Shown here: positions 7,001-24,300 of the stretch, in pieces
Position numbering within the stretch: the stretch's first letter is position 1
How the letters are laid out: each line of letters starts with the position of its first letter
DNA from: an uncultured Erysipelotrichaceae bacterium
Lineage (GTDB): Bacteria; Bacillota_I; Bacilli_A; RF39; UBA660
Length of the DNA: 35,394 bases
Assembly (NCBI GenBank): GCA_902793315.1
Contig: CADBCT010000004.1
Location: 36,573 to 71,966, forward strand
Direction: 5' to 3'
Program-made: the position numbers and the translations under genes
Notes under the pieces: generated by a model
What the model was told of the DNA's origin: nothing
The model's database searches: none
The model's input: only the letters and a program-made list of their open reading frames with translations

Positions 7001-7715
7001 AATAAATTTCTCAGTTTATTTATTAGCTCTTATAGCTATTTTAACAGCTTCTTATAAAGAATTCATTGTTATTAATATAATAGTTATTATTCATGAATTA
7101 GGACATGTTTTAGTAGCTAATTTATTTAAAATAGAAGTTAATAGTATTAATCTTTATCCACTAGGAGGAATTACTAGATTAAATATTGATTTAAATGTTA
7201 ATCTTTATAAAGAATTATTAATTCTATTAGGAGGACCGATCTTTCAATTTAATTCTTTAATATTACTAAAATATTTATTTCCTATGGAATTAGAAATGAT
7301 TAATTATTATTTCTATGGTATTTTATTATTTAATTTATTACCTATCTATCCATTAGATGGAGGTAGAATATTAAATTTATTAGTTGAATTATTTACTCCA
7401 TATAAATTGAGTATAAAAATAAGTATTTTAATTAGTTATTTTAGTTTATTAATAATCTTCTTAATAAATAGTAGTAACAATATTATTTTAATGATTATGT
7501 TTTTATTAGTATTAATTATCAAAGAAGAGAAAAAAATTAATTATATTTATCATAAATTTATTCTAGAAAGATATTTAAATAATTATCAATTTAAAAAAAC
7601 AAAAATTATTTCCAATAAAGATAATTTCTATCGTAATAAAAAACACATAATTAGGAATAAAAATAGGTATTATTATGAAAAAGAATATCTATCTAAAATA
7701 TTAAAAAAATATTGA
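6981..7715 (+). CDS. spoIVFB: Site-2 protease SpoIVFB (M50), no canonical start codon
   Basis: Intramembrane zinc metalloprotease that in Bacillus cleaves pro-sigma-K. The zinc motif HELGH is encoded at 7092-7106 and the second motif is NLLPIYPLDGGR with the metal-binding Asp; multiple membrane spans follow, then a basic C-terminal tail. After the in-frame TAG at 6978 there is no ATG, GTG or TTG until ATG 7284, which lies after HELGH and cannot be the start. The codons ATT 6981 and ATC 6984 give an N-terminus (KNIFKINF...) that lines up with Bacillus SpoIVFB (LILKIHVHP) from memory. I therefore place the start at ATT 6981, coupled to spoIVFA with a 20-base overlap; the exact start is uncertain. 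Confidence 0.85.
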   Translation: MIKNIFKINFSVYLLALIAILTASYKEFIVINIIVIIHELGHVLVANLFKIEVNSINLYPLGGITRLNIDLNVNLYKELLILLGGPIFQFNSLILLKYLFPMELEMINYYFYGILLFNLLPIYPLDGGRILNLLVELFTPYKLSIKISILISYFSLLIIFLINSSNNIILMIMFLLVLIIKEEKKINYIYHKFILERYLNNYQFKKTKIISNKDNFYRNKKHIIRNKNRYYYEKEYLSKILKKY

Positions 7716-7741
7716 CATATAAGGCGTTGATTTGCTATAAT
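7712..7741 (+). promoter_or_regulatory. Consensus promoter for tRNA genes
   Basis: TTGACA (7712-7717), an 18-base spacer, then TATAAT (7736-7741): a perfect sigma-A pair. The spoIVFB stop codon TGA lies within the -35 hexamer. Confidence 0.93.
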
Positions 7742-7764
7742 TCTATTACCGGCTGTGAAAAGAT

Positions 7765-7840
7765 GGGGCATTAGCTCAGCTGGGAGAGCGCCACGTTTGC
7801 ACCGTGGAGGTCAGCGGTTCGATCCCGCTATGCTCCACCA
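7765..7840 (+). tRNA. tRNA-Ala (anticodon TGC)
   Basis: A 76-nt cloverleaf: acceptor GGGGCAT/ATGCTCC with one G-T pair, D stem GCTC/GAGC, anticodon stem CCACG/CGTGG with loop TTTGCAC (anticodon TGC), T stem AGCGG/CCGCT with loop TTCGATC, and an encoded CCA. It sits 24 nt downstream of a consensus promoter. Confidence 0.98.
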
Positions 7841-7850
7841 TATGAATATT

Positions 7851-7870
7851 ACCCAGTTTTGGGTTTTTTT
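7851..7870 (+). terminator. Hairpin between the two tRNAs
   Basis: ACCCA (7851-7855) pairs with TGGGT around a GTTT loop and is followed by seven or more T. It looks like a terminator for tRNA-Ala, yet the next tRNA has no obvious promoter of its own, so it may be leaky or act in processing. Confidence 0.75.
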
Positions 7871-7873
7871 TAT

Positions 7874-7947
7874 GCCGATATAGTTTAGTGGTAGAACAGG
7901 TCCTTGGTAAGGATCAGAGGTAAGTTCAATTCTTACTTTCGGCGCCA
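7874..7947 (+). tRNA. tRNA-Thr (anticodon GGT)
   Basis: A 74-nt cloverleaf: acceptor GCCGATA/TTTCGGC (one T-T mismatch at the sixth pair), D stem GTTT/GAAC, anticodon stem GGTCC/GGATC with loop TTGGTAA (anticodon GGT), four-base variable loop, T stem GTAAG/CTTAC with loop TTCAATT, discriminator G and encoded CCA. The acceptor mismatch, weak D stem and short variable loop make it less canonical than the neighbouring tRNA-Ala. Confidence 0.88.
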
Positions 7948-7954
7948 GTTTTAA

Positions 7955-7977
7955 GCAACACAATGTGTTGTTTTTTT
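7955..7977 (+). terminator. Terminator after tRNA-Thr
   Basis: CAACAC (7956-7961) pairs with GTGTTG (7965-7970) around loop AAT, followed by seven T. Confidence 0.88.
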
Positions 7978-8053
7978 GTAAAAACAATGTAAATTGGCAA
8001 CAAATCACTTCAATGATTATCAAAATAGTATTGCAAATGTATTAGTCAACATA

Positions 8054-8082
8054 TTGTTTACTAGTTTAAAGTGTGATAAAAT
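8054..8082 (+). promoter_or_regulatory. Promoter of leader RNA/sRNA
   Basis: TTGTTT (8054-8059), a 17-base spacer, then TAAAAT (8077-8082). This predicts transcription starting at about 8089, the first G of the GGGATAA arm that closes the downstream structure. Confidence 0.65.
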
Positions 8083-8088
8083 GATTAT

Positions 8089-8192
8089 GGGATAATTATT
8101 AAGAATTACTTGTTTTTTCTTATATCTAATCAATTATCACGCGTTTGGTTTAGAAAATTTATCCCGAGAAGAGAAATTTCTCTTCTTTTTTT
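8089..8192 (+). ncRNA. Putative ~100-nt structured RNA (sRNA or attenuator)
   Basis: A promoter at 8054-8082 and a perfect terminator at 8167-8192 define a transcript with no start-codon ORF of note. Its first bases, GGGATAA (8089-8095), pair with TTATCCC (8159-8165) just before the terminator. They could instead pair, as GATAATT (8091-8097), with AATTATC (8132-8138). A U-rich stretch (8114-8121) is complementary, with one G-U pair, to the terminator's 5' arm (8169-8176). It matches none of the 6S, SRP, tmRNA or common riboswitch cores I know. It lies 54 nt before a bacteriocin exporter gene, so it may be its leader or an independent sRNA. Confidence 0.55.
8167..8192 (+). terminator. Terminator upstream of bacteriocin exporter
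   Basis: AGAAGAGA (8167-8174) pairs with TCTCTTCT (8179-8186) around AATT, then a run of T to 8192. Confidence 0.9.
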
Positions 8193-8245
8193 GTACAAAA
8201 AAATATTTTTTGCGAAATATATAATAGGAGGTGAAAGTAATATAA

Positions 8246-10318
8246 GTGAAAGTAGTTCTTCAGGACGGAATTAAAGATTGCGGTATTTGTTCTCTTTTAT
8301 CTATTGTTAGATTTTATGGTGGAGAAGTATCTAAAGAATATTTAAGGGAGATAACTAATACTACTAAGGATGGTGTTTCTTTTTATAATCTAATTGAAGG
8401 CGCGAAGAAAATAGGATTTGATGCAATTGGGCTATCTGGAAATATTGAAGATATTGATGTAAATAACTTACCTTGTATAGCTCATTTCATTATTAATAAA
8501 AGCTATAAACACTTTGTAGTTTTGTATGATTTTGATAAAAAGAAAAAACAAGTTACTTTAATGGATCCTGCTAAAGGCAAAAAAATAATCTCTATTTCAG
8601 AGTTTAACCTATTATCCAGCAATAATTATATATTCTTAAAACCAATAAAAAAACTACCAATAATGCAGAAGAAAAATATAATTTATAAAAATATTATCGA
8701 ATTATTTAAAATGAATAAAAAATTGTTGCTTTCTATAGTTATACTAACATTCTCATACTTTACTTTTAATGTACTTACCTCATTTCATTTTAAATACTTA
8801 TTAGAATATTCAATAAATTATAACTTAACTAAGAATATATATTATCTAAGTATTATTATGATAGTATTCTATTTTTTTAAAAATAGTAGTAATTTATTAA
8901 GAAATATTTTACTTAGTAAATGGACTATCTTCTTTGATAATGAAATAACTACTAATACTTATAGACAATTACTTTTACTTCCATATTTATATTATAAAAA
9001 TAGAACTACTGGTGAAGTTATTTCAAGATTCAAAGATTTAAATACTATAAGAAGCTTTATCAATAGATTCTTCTGCATTATTTCTACTGATTTAATTAGT
9101 ATTATTATATTCTTTATTATAATGTTTTCTTATAATAAAAAACTTACATTATATTTAATAATTCCTACTATTTGTCTAATACTATATCATTTCTTAATTA
9201 GTCCTAAAAAGAAAAAATATATTAAGAATATTAGTACCAAACAAGATATTATTAATTCATATCTCATTCAAGGTATAAGCAATGTTGATACTGTAAAGGG
9301 AAGTCATTTAGAAAAAAGATTAATTGATAAGTTTACTATTAATTATAAAGCTTTTTTAGAAAATATTTATTCTTATAACATGTTATTAGAAAGATATAGT
9401 TTTAATAAAAACCTTCTCAATGACTTTTCTTTATTAATTATCTTCGGTTTAGGATCTTATTATGTTATAAAAGGCAATTTATCTCTAAATAATCTTATCG
9501 TGTATCAACTCTTTTTTTCATATTTTAATTCTAACTTTCATAATTTAATAAGCATCTTAGAAGAATATAATTCTTATAAAGTAGCTCTCAATAGAGTTGA
9601 AGAAATATTTATGATTAATAAAGATAATTTTACTAATAATTATTTTTATCTGGCTTTTACTTTGAACGGAAGTATTATTTATAAAAATTTGACTTATAAA
9701 GTAGGAAGTAAGTTTTTGTTTAAAGATTTGAATTTAAGCATTAAGCAGGGTGAGAAAATTTTACTTAGTGGCGAAAGTGGTAGTGGTAAAAGCACTCTCA
9801 TGAAAATGCTTTTAAGATATGTTGAAGTTGATTTTGATAAGATTAAAATTGCTGATATTGATATTAATCATTATCATCTGGAAAATATTAGATCAAATAT
9901 TACTTATGTAACAAGTAATGAGTATTTGTTTACGGATACTATTAAAAATAATATTGTTCTATATAAGGATTATTCAGATGAAGAAGTTAATGAAGTTTGT
10001 AGAATCTGCTCCGTAGATGATATTGTTAAAAACAATGAAAATAGTTATGAAGCTTTAATTGAAGAAAATGGCTTTAATTTTAGTAATGGAGAAAGACAAA
10101 GAATTATTCTTGCTAGAAGTATTATTAAAAAGAGTAATATTTACATTTTTGATGAAGCTTTAGCTGGAATAGATGTTAATAGAGAAAAAAAGATTTTAGA
10201 GAATATTTTTAAATACTTGGATGATAAAACAATTATTGTAATATCACATCGATTTAATAATAAAAAACTATTTGATCGAGTATTAAAATTGGAAAAGGCA
10301 AAGATTTATGAAAACTAG
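8246..10318 (+). CDS. C39-peptidase ABC exporter for double-glycine peptides
   Basis: A PCAT-type exporter of 690 residues that cleaves the leader of bacteriocin precursors after GG and exports the peptide. Order: C39 peptidase (about 1-140; Gln6, Cys12 in DCGICSL, His89 in KHFVVLYD, Asp107 in MDPAKG), a six-helix membrane domain (about 155-435), and a nucleotide-binding domain with Walker A GESGSGKST (from residue 509), signature FSNGERQR, Walker B IYIFDEA and switch His in VISHRF. The Q-loop position reads YVTSNEYLF, with Ser or Thr where Gln is usual. The start is GTG 8246, the first codon after a stop, with GGAGGTG 12 bases upstream, a longish spacing. It overlaps the next gene and heads the peptide cluster. 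Confidence 0.95.
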   Translation: MKVVLQDGIKDCGICSLLSIVRFYGGEVSKEYLREITNTTKDGVSFYNLIEGAKKIGFDAIGLSGNIEDIDVNNLPCIAHFIINKSYKHFVVLYDFDKKKKQVTLMDPAKGKKIISISEFNLLSSNNYIFLKPIKKLPIMQKKNIIYKNIIELFKMNKKLLLSIVILTFSYFTFNVLTSFHFKYLLEYSINYNLTKNIYYLSIIMIVFYFFKNSSNLLRNILLSKWTIFFDNEITTNTYRQLLLLPYLYYKNRTTGEVISRFKDLNTIRSFINRFFCIISTDLISIIIFFIIMFSYNKKLTLYLIIPTICLILYHFLISPKKKKYIKNISTKQDIINSYLIQGISNVDTVKGSHLEKRLIDKFTINYKAFLENIYSYNMLLERYSFNKNLLNDFSLLIIFGLGSYYVIKGNLSLNNLIVYQLFFSYFNSNFHNLISILEEYNSYKVALNRVEEIFMINKDNFTNNYFYLAFTLNGSIIYKNLTYKVGSKFLFKDLNLSIKQGEKILLSGESGSGKSTLMKMLLRYVEVDFDKIKIADIDINHYHLENIRSNITYVTSNEYLFTDTIKNNIVLYKDYSDEEVNEVCRICSVDDIVKNNENSYEALIEENGFNFSNGERQRIILARSIIKKSNIYIFDEALAGIDVNREKKILENIFKYLDDKTIIVISHRFNNKKLFDRVLKLEKAKIYEN

Positions 10319-10715
10319 AAATTATGAAAGAAAAGATTTAATTATCTTTTTAATTATTTTACTTTTGGGATTTGAATTAATATCAATAATTGTATTATTA
10401 ACAATTAAAACTAATAAATATTTTAAAATATCGGGTATAGTAATAAAAGATAATTTGATATTTGTAATAGTAAATAAAGATGAGAGAAGAATAATTTATA
10501 GTGATAAAGTTTTATACTATGATAATAAACGTTATAAATATAATATTGTTGAAGATAGAGGAATTGTCATGAAAAAAAATAATGAAAACTATTATCAATT
10601 AGTATTAGAATTCAAATTAAAAAATATGAAAGCGAATGATGTAGTAGAAATAGTTTTTACTAAGGAAAGAATGCGTTTAATAGAAATATTTAAAATAATT
10701 TGGGAAGGTGGTTAA
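10308..10715 (+). CDS. Small membrane accessory protein of bacteriocin export or immunity
   Basis: It has 135 residues with one N-terminal transmembrane helix (about 11-32) and a ~100-residue beta-rich, Lys-rich domain (NKYFKISGIVIKDN..., ending FKIIWEGG). Its start overlaps the exporter gene by 11 bases and its end overlaps the first precursor gene, so all four genes are one transcript. The layout resembles a miniature HlyD/LcnD-type membrane fusion protein lacking the coiled coil, which would pair with the C39 exporter. Immunity protein is the alternative, as no other candidate is present in the cluster. The assignment rests on context and architecture, not on a recognised motif. Confidence 0.7.
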   Translation: MKTRNYERKDLIIFLIILLLGFELISIIVLLTIKTNKYFKISGIVIKDNLIFVIVNKDERRIIYSDKVLYYDNKRYKYNIVEDRGIVMKKNNENYYQLVLEFKLKNMKANDVVEIVFTKERMRLIEIFKIIWEGG

Positions 10716-10863
10716 AATTAGTAAAATAAGTGATGAGAAATTAGAAAAAATAAAAGGAGGAACAACTATATCAGTTTGGACTGGTATTGCTATCGCAGGA
10801 ATTGTGATTTTTTTATCAGGAGTAATTGATGGATTGATTAATCCGAAGGGGTGTGGTGAATGA
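10708..10863 (+). CDS. Double-glycine-leader bacteriocin precursor, peptide 1
   Basis: A 51-residue precursor. The leader ends ISDEKLEKIKGG, the classic double-glycine pattern with hydrophobic residues at -4, -7 and -12, and the predicted mature peptide has 33 residues (TTISVWTGIAIAGIV...NPKGCGE). The core is hydrophobic, with a GxxxG motif (GVIDG) and a single Cys third from the C-terminus. Start options are GTG 10708, which has no room for a ribosome binding site, and ATT 10717, which lies five bases after AAGGTGG, the spacing seen at other starts here. The leader is 18 or 15 residues accordingly. It overlaps the following precursor by four bases (ATGA). Confidence 0.88.
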   Translation: MVKISKISDEKLEKIKGGTTISVWTGIAIAGIVIFLSGVIDGLINPKGCGE

Positions 10864-11033
10864 TAAAGATGAGTAATGAAAATCTAGATAATACAACTGG
10901 TGGAAACACAACAATAAATGGTCCAATTATTAACGCAGTTATTAGTATAATTGATTTATTAAGAGAAGCTGGATATAGTTTGGGATCAGGTATTAGAAGA
11001 TTTAGTGAGAACAAGGTGTGTCCTTTAGAATAA
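10860..11033 (+). CDS. Double-glycine-leader bacteriocin precursor, peptide 2
   Basis: A 57-residue precursor. The leader MIKMSNENLDNTTGG is 15 residues (12 if ATG 10869 is used) and the predicted mature peptide has 42 residues: an N-terminal NTTINGP, an amphipathic segment (AVISIIDLLREAG), a GxxxG motif (GYSLG), a basic IRRF stretch and a C-terminal KVCPLE with one Cys. ATG 10860 overlaps the peptide 1 stop and has GGGGTG six bases upstream. Two adjacent DG precursors, each with GxxxG, next to one dedicated exporter fit a class IIb two-peptide bacteriocin. Activity is inferred; a signalling-peptide role is the alternative. Confidence 0.87.
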   Translation: MIKMSNENLDNTTGGNTTINGPIINAVISIIDLLREAGYSLGSGIRRFSENKVCPLE

Positions 11034-11096
11034 TAAATTTAATTTGATGAATTTTGTGTTTTTTTCTTGATATTTCACAAAAAAACTGGAAAATAG

Positions 11097-11125
11097 TTGA
11101 AAATTGAGCAATCTTTTGTTATAAT
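11097..11125 (+). promoter_or_regulatory. Promoter of rpsU
   Basis: TTGAAA (11097-11102), a 17-base spacer, then TATAAT (11120-11125) with an extended TG at 11117-11118. Confidence 0.92.
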
Positions 11126-11159
11126 TCTTTTTAGTTGAAAGCGAAGGGAGGGAAAAACA

Positions 11160-11363
11160 GTGGCAACTAAAGTAACTGTAAGAGGTAATCTTGATCAAGC
11201 ATTAAGAAAATTTAAACAAAAAGTCGCAAGAGATGGTGTCCCTTCTGAATGGAAGAAAAGAGAAGCTTATGATAAGCCTGGAGTAAGAAGAAGAGCAGCT
11301 AAAAAAGAAGGAATAAAAAATTCTAGAAAAAGAGAACGCTCAAATCGTAGTAGAGATTATTAA
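11160..11363 (+). CDS. rpsU: 30S ribosomal protein bS21
   Basis: Small-subunit ribosomal protein that in Bacteria lies near the 16S 3' end and anti-Shine-Dalgarno region. It has 67 residues, very basic, with the family core TVRGNLDQALRKFKQKVAR and KKREAYDKPGVRRR. It is slightly longer than the usual 57-60 residues because of the basic tail (KNSRKRERSNRSRDY). The start is GTG 11160, eight bases after GGGAGGG. It is monocistronic, with a consensus promoter before and a perfect 10-bp terminator after. rpsU-yqeY-yqfC order matches Bacillus. Confidence 0.97.
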   Translation: MATKVTVRGNLDQALRKFKQKVARDGVPSEWKKREAYDKPGVRRRAAKKEGIKNSRKRERSNRSRDY

Positions 11364-11365
11364 TT

Positions 11366-11391
11366 AAGTAGTATCTTTTGATACTACTTTT
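11366..11391 (+). terminator. Terminator after rpsU
   Basis: AAGTAGTATC (11366-11375) pairs perfectly with GATACTACTT (11380-11389) around loop TTTT, followed by T residues. Confidence 0.92.
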
Positions 11392-11406
11392 AATTTAATA
11401 AAAAAG

Positions 11407-11415
11407 TGTTATAAT
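11407..11415 (+). promoter_or_regulatory. Extended -10 promoter of yqeY
   Basis: TGTTATAAT (11407-11415) is a perfect TGnTATAAT; no good -35 lies upstream because the rpsU terminator occupies the space. Confidence 0.8.
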
Positions 11416-11434
11416 TTTAATAGGAGATGATAAT

Positions 11435-11872
11435 ATGGTAGAACAATTAGAAAAAGATTTAATTGAAGCTATGAAAGCAAAAGAAAAAGAAAGATTAGCT
11501 GTTATAAGAGCAGTAAAAGCTGGTTTAAAACAAGAACAAATTGATCATAAAAAAGAAATTAATGATGAATTATTAATTGATGTTGTTAATAGACAAGTAA
11601 AAATGAGAAAAGAATCTATTGTTGAATTTGAAAAAGGTAATAGACAAGATTTAATTGATCAAACAAAAGCTGAAATAGATATTTTAATGAAATATTTACC
11701 TGAACAATTATCAGAAGAAGAAGTATTAAAGGTAATTGATGAAATCTTTGCTGAAGTAAAACCAGAAAGTCAAAAAGATATGGGTAGAGTAATGAAAGAA
11801 GCTAATGCTAAATTAAAAGGTAAAGCTGATATGAAAACTGTATCTAATATTATTAAAGAAAAATTACAATAA
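11435..11872 (+). CDS. yqeY: YqeY / GatB_Yqey-domain protein
   Basis: It has 145 residues with the all-helical YqeY domain found at the C-terminus of the GatB amidotransferase subunit, where it contacts tRNA. Family segments are LIEAMKAKEKERLAVIRAVK near the N-terminus, KQVKMRKESIVEFEKGNRQD in the middle, and a conserved C-terminal KDMGRVMKEANAKLKGKADM. The stand-alone protein's job is unclear, though a tRNA-related role is usually suggested. The start ATG 11435 has AGGAGATG upstream. It stands alone between its own extended -10 promoter and a terminator, following rpsU as in many Firmicutes. Confidence 0.95.
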   Translation: MVEQLEKDLIEAMKAKEKERLAVIRAVKAGLKQEQIDHKKEINDELLIDVVNRQVKMRKESIVEFEKGNRQDLIDQTKAEIDILMKYLPEQLSEEEVLKVIDEIFAEVKPESQKDMGRVMKEANAKLKGKADMKTVSNIIKEKLQ

Positions 11873-21368: not shown

Positions 21369-24300
21369 ATGAACGATAAAATGCAGATATTACTTGATAG
21401 AATAAATATTGATGAGTCATCTTATCAATATTTTTCTGGTGCTGCTTTAACTAAAATTAAAATTAACCCTAAAAAAGACAGTTGGATTATTTATATTGAT
21501 ATTGATAATTTATTACCAGTTGAAGTATATGAGGAAATAGAAAGTAAAAAGAATTTGTTGGACAAGAATGCTAGTAGTATTGATTTTATTTATAATGTTA
21601 AGTATAAGAAGAATTCTTTATATAAAGATTATTATCCATATTTATTAAGTACTTTAAAGAAAGACTTAAAAGTTATTGAAATATTTGAAGATTGTATGGA
21701 AGTTCAAGATGATAGATTAGTCTTAGTAGTTTCTAATTCTCAAGAACAAGCTAAATTAGAAAGAGTACTTAATAAGATGCATAAGTTTTATAAAAAATTA
21801 GGTTATGAAGAAGAAATAAATATTATTATTAATCATAAAGAAGATATTCAAGATGCTATTCAAAAAGAATTAGAAGATACTTTAAAAGATCTTAAGATAG
21901 TTGAAGATAAAGAACCACCTAAAGAAAAAGAAAAAAAGTTATTTCGTAGGGAAAAGAAAGATGAAAATAGTATCTTTGGAGGAAAAGTTATTAAAGATAA
22001 GCCAATTAAGATTAAAACTATTATTGGTGAAGATGGAGATGTTACTGTAGAAGCTAAAGTCTTTGGTACTGATTTCTTTGAATCTAGTAAAACTGATTTT
22101 AAGATTATTACTTTAAAAATTACTGATTATTCTGATAGTATGTATTGTAAATTATTTGTTAGAGATGATGAAGAATACAGTAAATTAAAAAAAGAGTTAA
22201 AGGAAGGTAATTGGTATTTAATAAAGGGTTATACTAAGAATGATCCATATTCTAAAGAAATAGTTTTGAATGCTAGAGATATAGTTAAAATAGAAAAAGA
22301 TGAAGAAGAAATAAAAGATACTGCTTTAATTAAAAGAGTAGAATTGCATGCTCATAGTAAAATGAGTCAAATGGATGGAGTAGCTGATGAAACTGATTTA
22401 GTTAGTACTGCTATGAAGTTTGGTATGAAGGCAGTTGCTATTACTGATCATAATGGAGTACAAGGATTCCCTCATGTCTTTAATATGGTTACTTCTCATA
22501 ATAAAAAGTTAAAAGAAGGAGAAGAACCTTTTAAAGCTATTTATGGGGCGGAACTTACAATGATTGATGATTCAGTTAATATTGTACTTAGACCTACTGA
22601 TAAAGTAATGTTAGATGAAACATATGTGGTGTTTGACTTTGAAACTACTGGATTTAATGCTGGTGGAGAAGATTCTATTATTGAAATAGGTGCTGTTAAG
22701 ATTAAAGATGGGGTTATATTAGAAAGATATGATGAATTAATTAATCCTGGAAGACCTTTACCAGATAAGATAGTAGAATTAACTAATATTACTGATGAAA
22801 TGTTAAAAGATAAAGATAATGAAGAGGATGCAGTCAAGAGATTCATCGAATGGTTTGGAGATTTACCAATGGTTGCTCATAATGCTAAGTTTGATGTATC
22901 TTTCTTAGAAATGGCCTATAAAAAATATGATTTAGGAGAATTTAAAAATCCAGTTATTGATACTTTAGAATTATCAAGAACTTTGGATACAGCTTATGCT
23001 AGACATAGTTTAAGTGCTTTAGTAAAAAGATATGAGGTTCCTTGGGATGAAGAAGCTCATCATAGAGGAGATTATGATGCTGAAGGAACAGCTTTAGTCT
23101 TCCATAAGATGTTAAAGAAATTATCCAATCGTAATATTGAAAAAATGAATGAATTAGATAAATTAGTATCTAAAGAAGATATTCATAAATACGGTCGTGC
23201 TCATCATATTAATTTATTAGTAAAGAATAAAACTGGTTTAAAGAATTTATTTAAATTAGTTAGTTTAGCTAATACTACTTATTTATATAAAACGCCTAGA
23301 ATACTTAGAAGTGTTGTTGAGGAACATAGAGAAGGTTTATTAATAGGTAGCGGTTGCTATGAGGGAGAAGTCTTCAATGAAGCTAAGTCAAAGAGTGATG
23401 AAGATTTATCTAATATTATTAGATTCTATGATTATGTAGAAGTACAACCAATAGAATGTTATGATCATTTAATTCAAACAAGTGATTTTGCTACTAAAGT
23501 TGAAGTTGCTGCTAATATTGAAAAGATTGTTAGGGTTACTGAAGAAGCTGGTAAAATTATTGTTGCTACTGGTGATGTTCATCATATAAAACGTGATGAT
23601 AAAATTTATCGTGAAATAATAGTTAATCAAAAAGTTCCTGGTGGAGGTAGACATCCTCTGGCTAAGAGTAATATTACAAGTATACCTTCAAATCATTTTA
23701 GAACTACTAATGAAATGTTAGAAGACTTTAGTTTCTTAGGACCAGATAAAGCTTATGAAATAGTAGTTGAAAATACTAATAAAATAGCTGATATGTGTGA
23801 AATAGTAGAAGTTATTATTGATACTGGAGGTATTCCATTCTCTCCAAGAGTTAAATCAGATGATGGAAAAGAATACTTAGATTGTCCTGTTGTAGTAACT
23901 GATCTTGTTTATACAAAAGCAGCAGATTGGTATGGAGATCCTCTTCCATATGCAATAGAAGAGAGAATTGCTACTGAATTATATGGAGATATTGTCTTTA
24001 AGATGTTAAGTTCTGAATTAAAAGATAAAGGACTTGAAGGAGAAGACTTTGATATAGAAGTTCATAAAAGATTACATGAAGAAATATTAAAGGGTTCAGA
24101 TAATATTAAATCCTTAGTAAAAGAATATGTTAAGAAAACTAGTGAAGAAGAATTAGATGAAAAAGGATTAGAAAAAGCAACTAAGAAAGCTCTAGGTGGA
24201 GTTATTGGTGGAGGATTTGATCCAATCTATTTGATTTCACAGAGATTAGTTAAACATTCTAATGATGAAGGATATTTAGTTGGATCACGTGGTTCTGTTG

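What the first reader, a model, noticed from the sequence alone, without database searches (positions are those of the whole stretch)
8246..11033. Candidate class IIb two-peptide bacteriocin cluster
Four overlapping genes: C39-peptidase exporter, small membrane protein, and two precursor peptides with double-glycine leaders. The predicted mature peptides (33 and 42 residues) each contain GxxxG (GVIDG; GYSLG), the helix-packing motif described for two-peptide bacteriocins such as lactococcin G and plantaricin EF. The peptides are not ones I recognise. A named immunity protein is missing, so the 135-residue membrane protein may serve immunity or export.
Basis: partly seen in the sequence, partly recalled or inferred. 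Interest (0 to 1): 0.82.

Follow-up and report, generated by a model that had tools for sequence, protein, structure and literature searches.

The report
Family-wide two-peptide bacteriocin-like export cluster
A four-gene cluster that makes and exports a matched pair of small membrane-active peptides, probably a two-part bacterial toxin, turns out to be carried at the same chromosomal place by nearly every member of a large family of uncultured bacteria, which is unusual because such toxins are normally optional and patchy.

Summary
Window 8246-11033 encodes an intact C39-peptidase ABC exporter, a 135-aa membrane protein and two double-glycine precursors (mature 33 and 42 aa, each with GxxxG). 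The same four genes, in the same order and mostly just upstream of rpsU-yqeY, recur across the window's GTDB family: peptide B in 237 of 252 genomes (133 of 138 genera), peptide A in 137 of 146. Nothing comparable turned up in other Bacilli families, phages, viral contigs or plasmids. Exporter distances follow core-gene distances, and both mature peptides are under purifying selection (dN/dS about 0.2).

The 135-aa protein is best read as a minimal HlyD-type export accessory (AlphaFold pLDDT 92), not immunity. Size and position match CbnZ, the 42-aa immunity protein of carnobacteriocin XY. It is intact in 20 of 30 species of the window's genus and truncated or missing in 10, including the window.

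Best reading: a vertically inherited, class-IIb-like two-peptide bacteriocin system. Killing is untested. Near-universality and repeated pepC loss leave room for a non-killing role.

The parts
8246..10318 (+). C39-peptidase-containing ABC exporter (PCAT), 690 aa; removes double-glycine leaders and exports
   Evidence: Pfam Peptidase_C39 8.7e-29, ABC_membrane 6.7e-30, ABC_tran 1.6e-24; closest solved relative PCAT1 4ry2, 4e-86; catalytic and ABC motifs intact
10308..10715 (+). 135-aa single-TM protein with extracellular beta-barrel; minimal HlyD-type export accessory (inferred)
   Evidence: AlphaFold pLDDT 92; membrane fusion proteins among top structural matches, HlyD of HlyB/D aligned over 127 of 135 residues, Z 6.3; profile match to mycoplasma MAG1140 family, E 1e-8
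10708..10863 (+). Precursor of peptide A; leader ...KIKGG, mature TTISVWTGIAIAGIVIFLSGVIDGLINPKGCGE (33 aa)
   Evidence: PF10439 E 0.0011 below cut-off; family alignment A2 with invariant G38, P46, C49 and near-invariant F35, G42; 137/146 genomes of the order
10860..11033 (+). Precursor of peptide B; leader ...DNTTGG, mature NTTINGPIINAVISIIDLLREAGYSLGSGIRRFSENKVCPLE (42 aa)
   Evidence: family alignment A1 with invariant G38, G42, R47, C54; 237/252 genomes of the family
11018..11047 (+). Vestige of the fifth gene pepC (GTG, VSFRIINLI then stop); intact in 20 of 30 species of the genus
   Evidence: frame and position match intact pepC of congeners such as L010/L083; no pepC match in the window's genome (genome 70% complete)
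8166..8187 (+). Terminator-like hairpin with T-run upstream of the exporter, probably ending upstream transcription
   Evidence: pattern scan; similar hairpins about 80-90 bases upstream in several relatives; no Rfam match

Best explanation
The locus is a vertically inherited, near-universal two-peptide bacteriocin-type system of one GTDB family of small-genome Bacilli. Shown by sequence: a C39 ABC exporter, a TM-plus-barrel accessory and two overlapping double-glycine precursors with conserved GxxxG. Inferred: the exporter cuts both leaders and exports the peptides, with the accessory acting as a short HlyD-type adaptor. Peptide A, a hydrophobic helix, and peptide B, an amphipathic helix ending in RR...C, pair through their GxxxG faces in a target membrane and make it leak. 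In many relatives pepC, a membrane-anchored look-alike of peptide B's pairing half, protects the producer, perhaps by occupying peptide A or a shared receptor. In the window pepC has decayed, so the producer must be insensitive for another reason.
For: Intact C39 exporter. Same gene order in dozens of loci. Peptides in 237/252 and 137/146 genomes, one pair per genome as a rule; in one genome the pair is duplicated as a pair (L150). GxxxG kept in 69/70 and 70/70. Some relatives' peptide A exceed the TIGR03949 class IIb cut-off. pepC has the size, single TM and position of CbnZ, proven immunity for carnobacteriocin XY (PMC6957408). pepC resembles peptide B (hhalign E 1.2e-5) but not peptide A (prob 0.1). 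Selection on mature peptides is purifying. Genomes lacking peptide B mostly also lack a close C39 exporter match.
Against: Bacteriocin genes are usually patchy and mobile (general knowledge); this one is near-universal and syntenic. pepC was lost or truncated in 10 of 30 congeners while the peptides stay under constraint, odd if pepC is the required immunity. Net charges are -1 and 0, not cationic as is common for class IIb. The window's own peptides miss every curated bacteriocin cut-off. No activity data exist. The accessory's HlyD match has a middling Z and no Foldseek hit at E <= 0.001.
Confidence: 0.55

Rival explanations
1. The pair is exported to act on the producer's own envelope or colony (structural peptide pair, kin-recognition or envelope function), not to kill competitors; it is a core physiological system.
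For: Near-universal, single copy, mostly at one chromosomal site, distances track core genes; purifying selection; pepC dispensable; no immunity gene in the window; mycoplasmas keep a related exporter plus accessory next to ybeY-cdd-era without adjacent peptides.
Against: Peptide A of some relatives scores as class IIb bacteriocin; pepC looks like CbnZ-type immunity; no precedent known to me for this role.
Confidence: 0.28
2. One or both peptides are secreted signals (quorum or induction peptides) read by a receptor.
For: Weak matches to EntF induction factor and ComC models.
Against: The window's EntF match covers only the leader region (residues 4-21); no regulator gene was noticed in or next to the cluster; two paired GxxxG helices are not typical of signals.
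Confidence: 0.08
3. The 135-aa protein is the immunity protein, as the first reader thought possible.
For: Small membrane protein in the operon; variable in sequence (dN/dS 0.55-0.7 in low-divergence pairs, a biased figure).
Against: Whole-length fold match to HlyD of HlyB/D and matches to other membrane fusion proteins; homologue MAG1140 accompanies the exporter in mycoplasmas that have no adjacent peptides; canonical C39 exporters have full-length HlyD partners in the same relative place; relatives have a better immunity candidate, pepC.
Confidence: 0.07

Closest known systems
Class IIb two-peptide bacteriocins, lactobin A/cerein 7B family (NCBIfam TIGR03949)
   Same: GG leader and GxxxG-bearing hydrophobic mature peptide encoded with a C39 exporter; three of six relatives' peptide A tested pass the curated cut-off
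   Different: Window peptide A does not; window peptide B matches no curated family; single Cys in the C-terminal region of both; near-universal chromosomal locus; short accessory
Carnobacteriocin XY with immunity protein CbnZ (PMC6957408)
   Same: pepC of relatives is a short one-TM peptide encoded immediately downstream of the pair, like the 42-aa CbnZ
   Different: pepC overlaps the peptide B gene and resembles peptide B's GxxxGxxxR half; vestigial in the window; immunity untested
Lactococcin G / enterocin 1071 family (NF038034, NF038035)
   Same: Weak profile similarity of peptide A members (best 2e-6) and GxxxG
   Different: All hits whose scores were shown lie below the curated cut-off of 37 bits
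Mycoplasma Mbov_0121 exporter (NF045998) plus MAG1140 family (NF045999)
   Same: C39 exporter followed by a short TM-barrel protein, upstream of ybeY-cdd-era; fold topology and profile match
   Different: Window proteins are below curated cut-offs; no peptide pair next to the mycoplasma genes; exporter orthology not resolved by tree
Cdz contact-dependent two-protein bacteriocin of Caulobacter (PMC5380434)
   Same: Two small glycine-zipper proteins, type I exporter and a small membrane immunity protein
   Different: Outer-membrane organism, longer proteins (86 and 84 aa), extended glycine zippers and aggregates

Membership tests
Class IIb two-peptide bacteriocin | Two different precursors encoded side by side with double-glycine leaders and a C39 exporter | tested here: met
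   conserved order in relatives
Class IIb two-peptide bacteriocin | GxxxG helix-packing motif in each mature peptide | tested here: met
   GVIDG and GYSLG; kept in 69/70 (GxxxG/A) and 70/70 relatives
Class IIb two-peptide bacteriocin | Dedicated immunity gene in the cluster | tested here: inconclusive
   candidate pepC in 79/194 family genomes but only a truncated vestige in the window; function untested
Class IIb two-peptide bacteriocin | Both peptides needed together for full antibacterial activity | not testable with these tools
   needs synthetic or expressed peptides
TIGR03949 lactobin A/cerein 7B family | Score above the curated 21.5 bits | tested here: not met
   window peptide A gives no TIGR03949 match at E <= 1; three relatives score 29.5-32.0. 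So the window peptide is not filed in this family although some homologues qualify
MAG1140 family (NF045999) | Score above the curated 35 bits | tested here: not met
   18.6 bits for the window protein; remote homologue by profile comparison only
HlyD-type membrane fusion protein | N-terminal TM helix followed by the adaptor beta-barrel | tested here: inconclusive
   predicted helix 6-32 and barrel 34-123; 127 residues aligned to HlyD 7sgr_C, Z 6.3, rmsd 3.9; unrelated barrels score alike, so support is moderate
HlyD-type membrane fusion protein | Coiled-coil hairpin and lipoyl domain | tested here: not met
   absent; 135 aa with no such segment. It is therefore described as HlyD-like, a minimal form, not as a member

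The most novel reading that the evidence does not exclude
A whole family of uncultured Bacilli carries, as a core and vertically inherited part of its chromosome, a two-peptide export system whose main job is not optional competition but a conserved envelope or kin-recognition role. It would be built on an exporter-plus-minimal-HlyD module shared with mycoplasmas, with pepC, a leaderless membrane-anchored mimic of one peptide, as a dispensable self-protection or tuning partner.
Probability: 0.25. Interest if true: 0.85.

Novelty: new variant of a known kind. Interest (0 to 1): 0.62.

Why it matters
Bacteriocins are thought of as patchy, horizontally moving weapons. A two-peptide system kept at mostly one chromosomal site across more than 130 genera of uncultured Bacilli, under purifying selection, would make these peptides a defining trait of that lineage and a large untapped peptide set. 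The pepC look-alike of peptide B suggests a simple, testable immunity mechanism (a membrane-held decoy of one partner), and its repeated loss gives a natural experiment. The link to the mycoplasma exporter/MAG1140 pair offers a lead on what those uncharacterised exporters carry.

Tried and rejected
Rfam search of 7700-11450 found only the two tRNAs, so no known regulatory RNA upstream. The 8166-8187 hairpin was considered as an attenuator and judged an ordinary upstream terminator. Phage, plasmid and viral-contig searches with a consensus peptide B gave no relative. An interpeptide disulfide through the two conserved Cys was considered (a Cys in the C-terminal region of both peptides in 68 of 70 pairs), but no DsbA-like protein (PF13462) was found in the 19 genomes of the genus searched, so it stays unsupported. 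PDB sequence search with the 135-aa profile found nothing significant. Foldseek gave no match at E <= 0.001 for the 135-aa model. The exporter tree does not resolve whether mycoplasma and family exporters are sister groups. Apparent absences of the cluster were checked in 8 genomes: 2 end at the contig edge, 4 lack yqeY too, and only G066 and G153 look truly empty. Searches for published descriptions found none in the held library. A search in Clostridia could not be run.

Full report
What is there. The window holds four overlapping genes on the + strand: a 690-aa exporter (8246-10318), a 135-aa protein (10308-10715), peptide A (10708-10863) and peptide B (10860-11033). The exporter carries Peptidase_C39, ABC membrane and ATPase domains with intact motifs; its nearest solved relative is PCAT1. 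The mature peptides after GG are 33 and 42 residues, with GVIDG and GYSLG. Peptide A is hydrophobic (Kyte-Doolittle 2.3 over 19 residues) and peptide B amphipathic if helical (moment 0.64). Flanks are ordinary core genes: mreC, mreD, tRNA-Ala and tRNA-Thr upstream; rpsU, yqeY, yqfD, vanZ, ybeY, cdd and era downstream.

It is a conserved unit. Searching with the 135-aa protein brought up the same four-gene order in many genomes of the same GTDB family. A profile of peptide B (A1) finds it in 237 of 252 family genomes and 133 of 138 genera, almost always once per genome. A profile of peptide A (A2) finds it in 137 of 146 genomes of the order. In 395 genomes of the class, matches outside the family cover mainly the leader. 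Of eight genomes that seemed to lack the cluster, two end at a contig edge there, four lack yqeY as well, and two look truly empty, so true prevalence is probably above 94%. In most loci with enough sequence, the cluster sits just upstream of rpsU-yqeY and the rest of the block. Exporter distances correlate with those of six neighbouring core genes (r 0.885, no permutation of 5000 as high, 13 taxa). This points to vertical inheritance (inference).

The peptides are constrained. In 70 distinct pairs, GxxxG (or GxxxA) is kept in 69 A and 70 B sequences; 68 of 70 pairs have a Cys near the C-terminus of both peptides, and 65 of 70 of each peptide have exactly one Cys. Within the genus, dN/dS of mature A and B is about 0.2, of pepC about 0.35-0.4, and of the 135-aa protein higher, though that last figure is biased by choosing pairs on its own synonymous distance. 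Nearest relatives of the window give similar values for the peptides.

The 135-aa protein. AlphaFold predicts, with mean pLDDT 92, a TM helix, a beta-barrel and a short C-terminal helix. Foldseek gives nothing at E <= 0.001. In the VIA re-alignment the list is rich in membrane fusion proteins (CusB Z 8.1, MacA 7.8, BesA 7.8, ZneB 7.7, MexA 7.5), and HlyD of the HlyB/D complex aligns over 127 of 135 residues including the TM helix (Z 6.3). These Z values are middling and unrelated barrels score alike, so the fold alone is not proof. It is also a remote homologue of the mycoplasma MAG1140 family (hhalign E 1e-8), whose own model has the same topology. In mycoplasmas MAG1140 follows a C39 exporter and precedes ybeY-cdd-era. 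Canonical C39 exporters in this class sit next to longer HlyD-type proteins. I therefore read it as a minimal export accessory.

A fifth gene. In 29 of 71 distinct loci an ORF of about 40-60 aa starts 12-16 bases inside the end of the peptide B gene (further in for a few). This pepC has no GG leader, one TM segment and a C-terminal GxxxGxxxR. Its profile aligns to peptide B (E 1.2e-5) and not to peptide A, and the pepC profile picks up peptide B itself in two genomes. It occurs in 79 of 194 family genomes, mostly beside peptide B, and was not found in the window's genome, which is 70% complete. In the window's genus it is intact in 20 of 30 species and truncated or gone in 10; the window keeps GTG 11018-11047, VSFRIINLI-stop. 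In L247 an out-of-frame remnant of the motif is still readable. CbnZ, the 42-residue one-TM immunity protein of carnobacteriocin XY, is encoded immediately downstream of its pair (PMC6957408), so pepC is a good immunity candidate in relatives. It is untested, and its loss without loss of the peptides is unexplained.

What it is called. Three of six relatives' peptide A tested exceed the class IIb lactobin A/cerein 7B cut-off; the window's own peptide A does not and gives only sub-threshold hits. Peptide B of the window matches no curated family, and its homologues only weakly. So it works like a class IIb system, and some homologues would be named so, but membership of the window pair rests on activity tests that cannot be done here.

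Judgement. What is new is its distribution (near-universal, mostly one site, vertical), the short accessory shared with mycoplasmas, and pepC. Whether it kills is open: class-IIb-like killing is favoured at 0.55, and a core envelope or recognition role stands at 0.28.

Noticed in passing
L111, L114, L115, L116, L117, L122: In Mollicutes family f3 a GG-leader protein (about 60-110 aa) sits at a fixed site between an rsmI-like gene and rplU; candidate cargo of their exporters.
   Followed up: partly
L118, L121, L119, L120: Other GG-leader proteins with one hydrophobic segment and a GF-x-W-D-like C-terminal part in f4 genus g151 and in f7/f12.
   Followed up: no
L213:1047-1439 and L215:1047-1439 (strand of the exporter): A 130-aa TM plus barrel-like protein sits directly beside a C39 exporter and near a possible radical-SAM-like ORF; perhaps another minimal membrane fusion protein.
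   Followed up: no
L150 (G045:C2, about 22883-23444): Tandem duplication of the pair, peptide A-B-A-B, with the C-terminal Cys missing from peptide B in one pair.
   Followed up: partly
L126: A RelB/DinJ-like antitoxin ORF lies between peptide B and rpsU in G004.
   Followed up: no
L247, downstream of peptide B: Frameshifted pepC remnant with the GKYIGKFIKN motif still readable in another frame, which suggests recent decay.
   Followed up: partly
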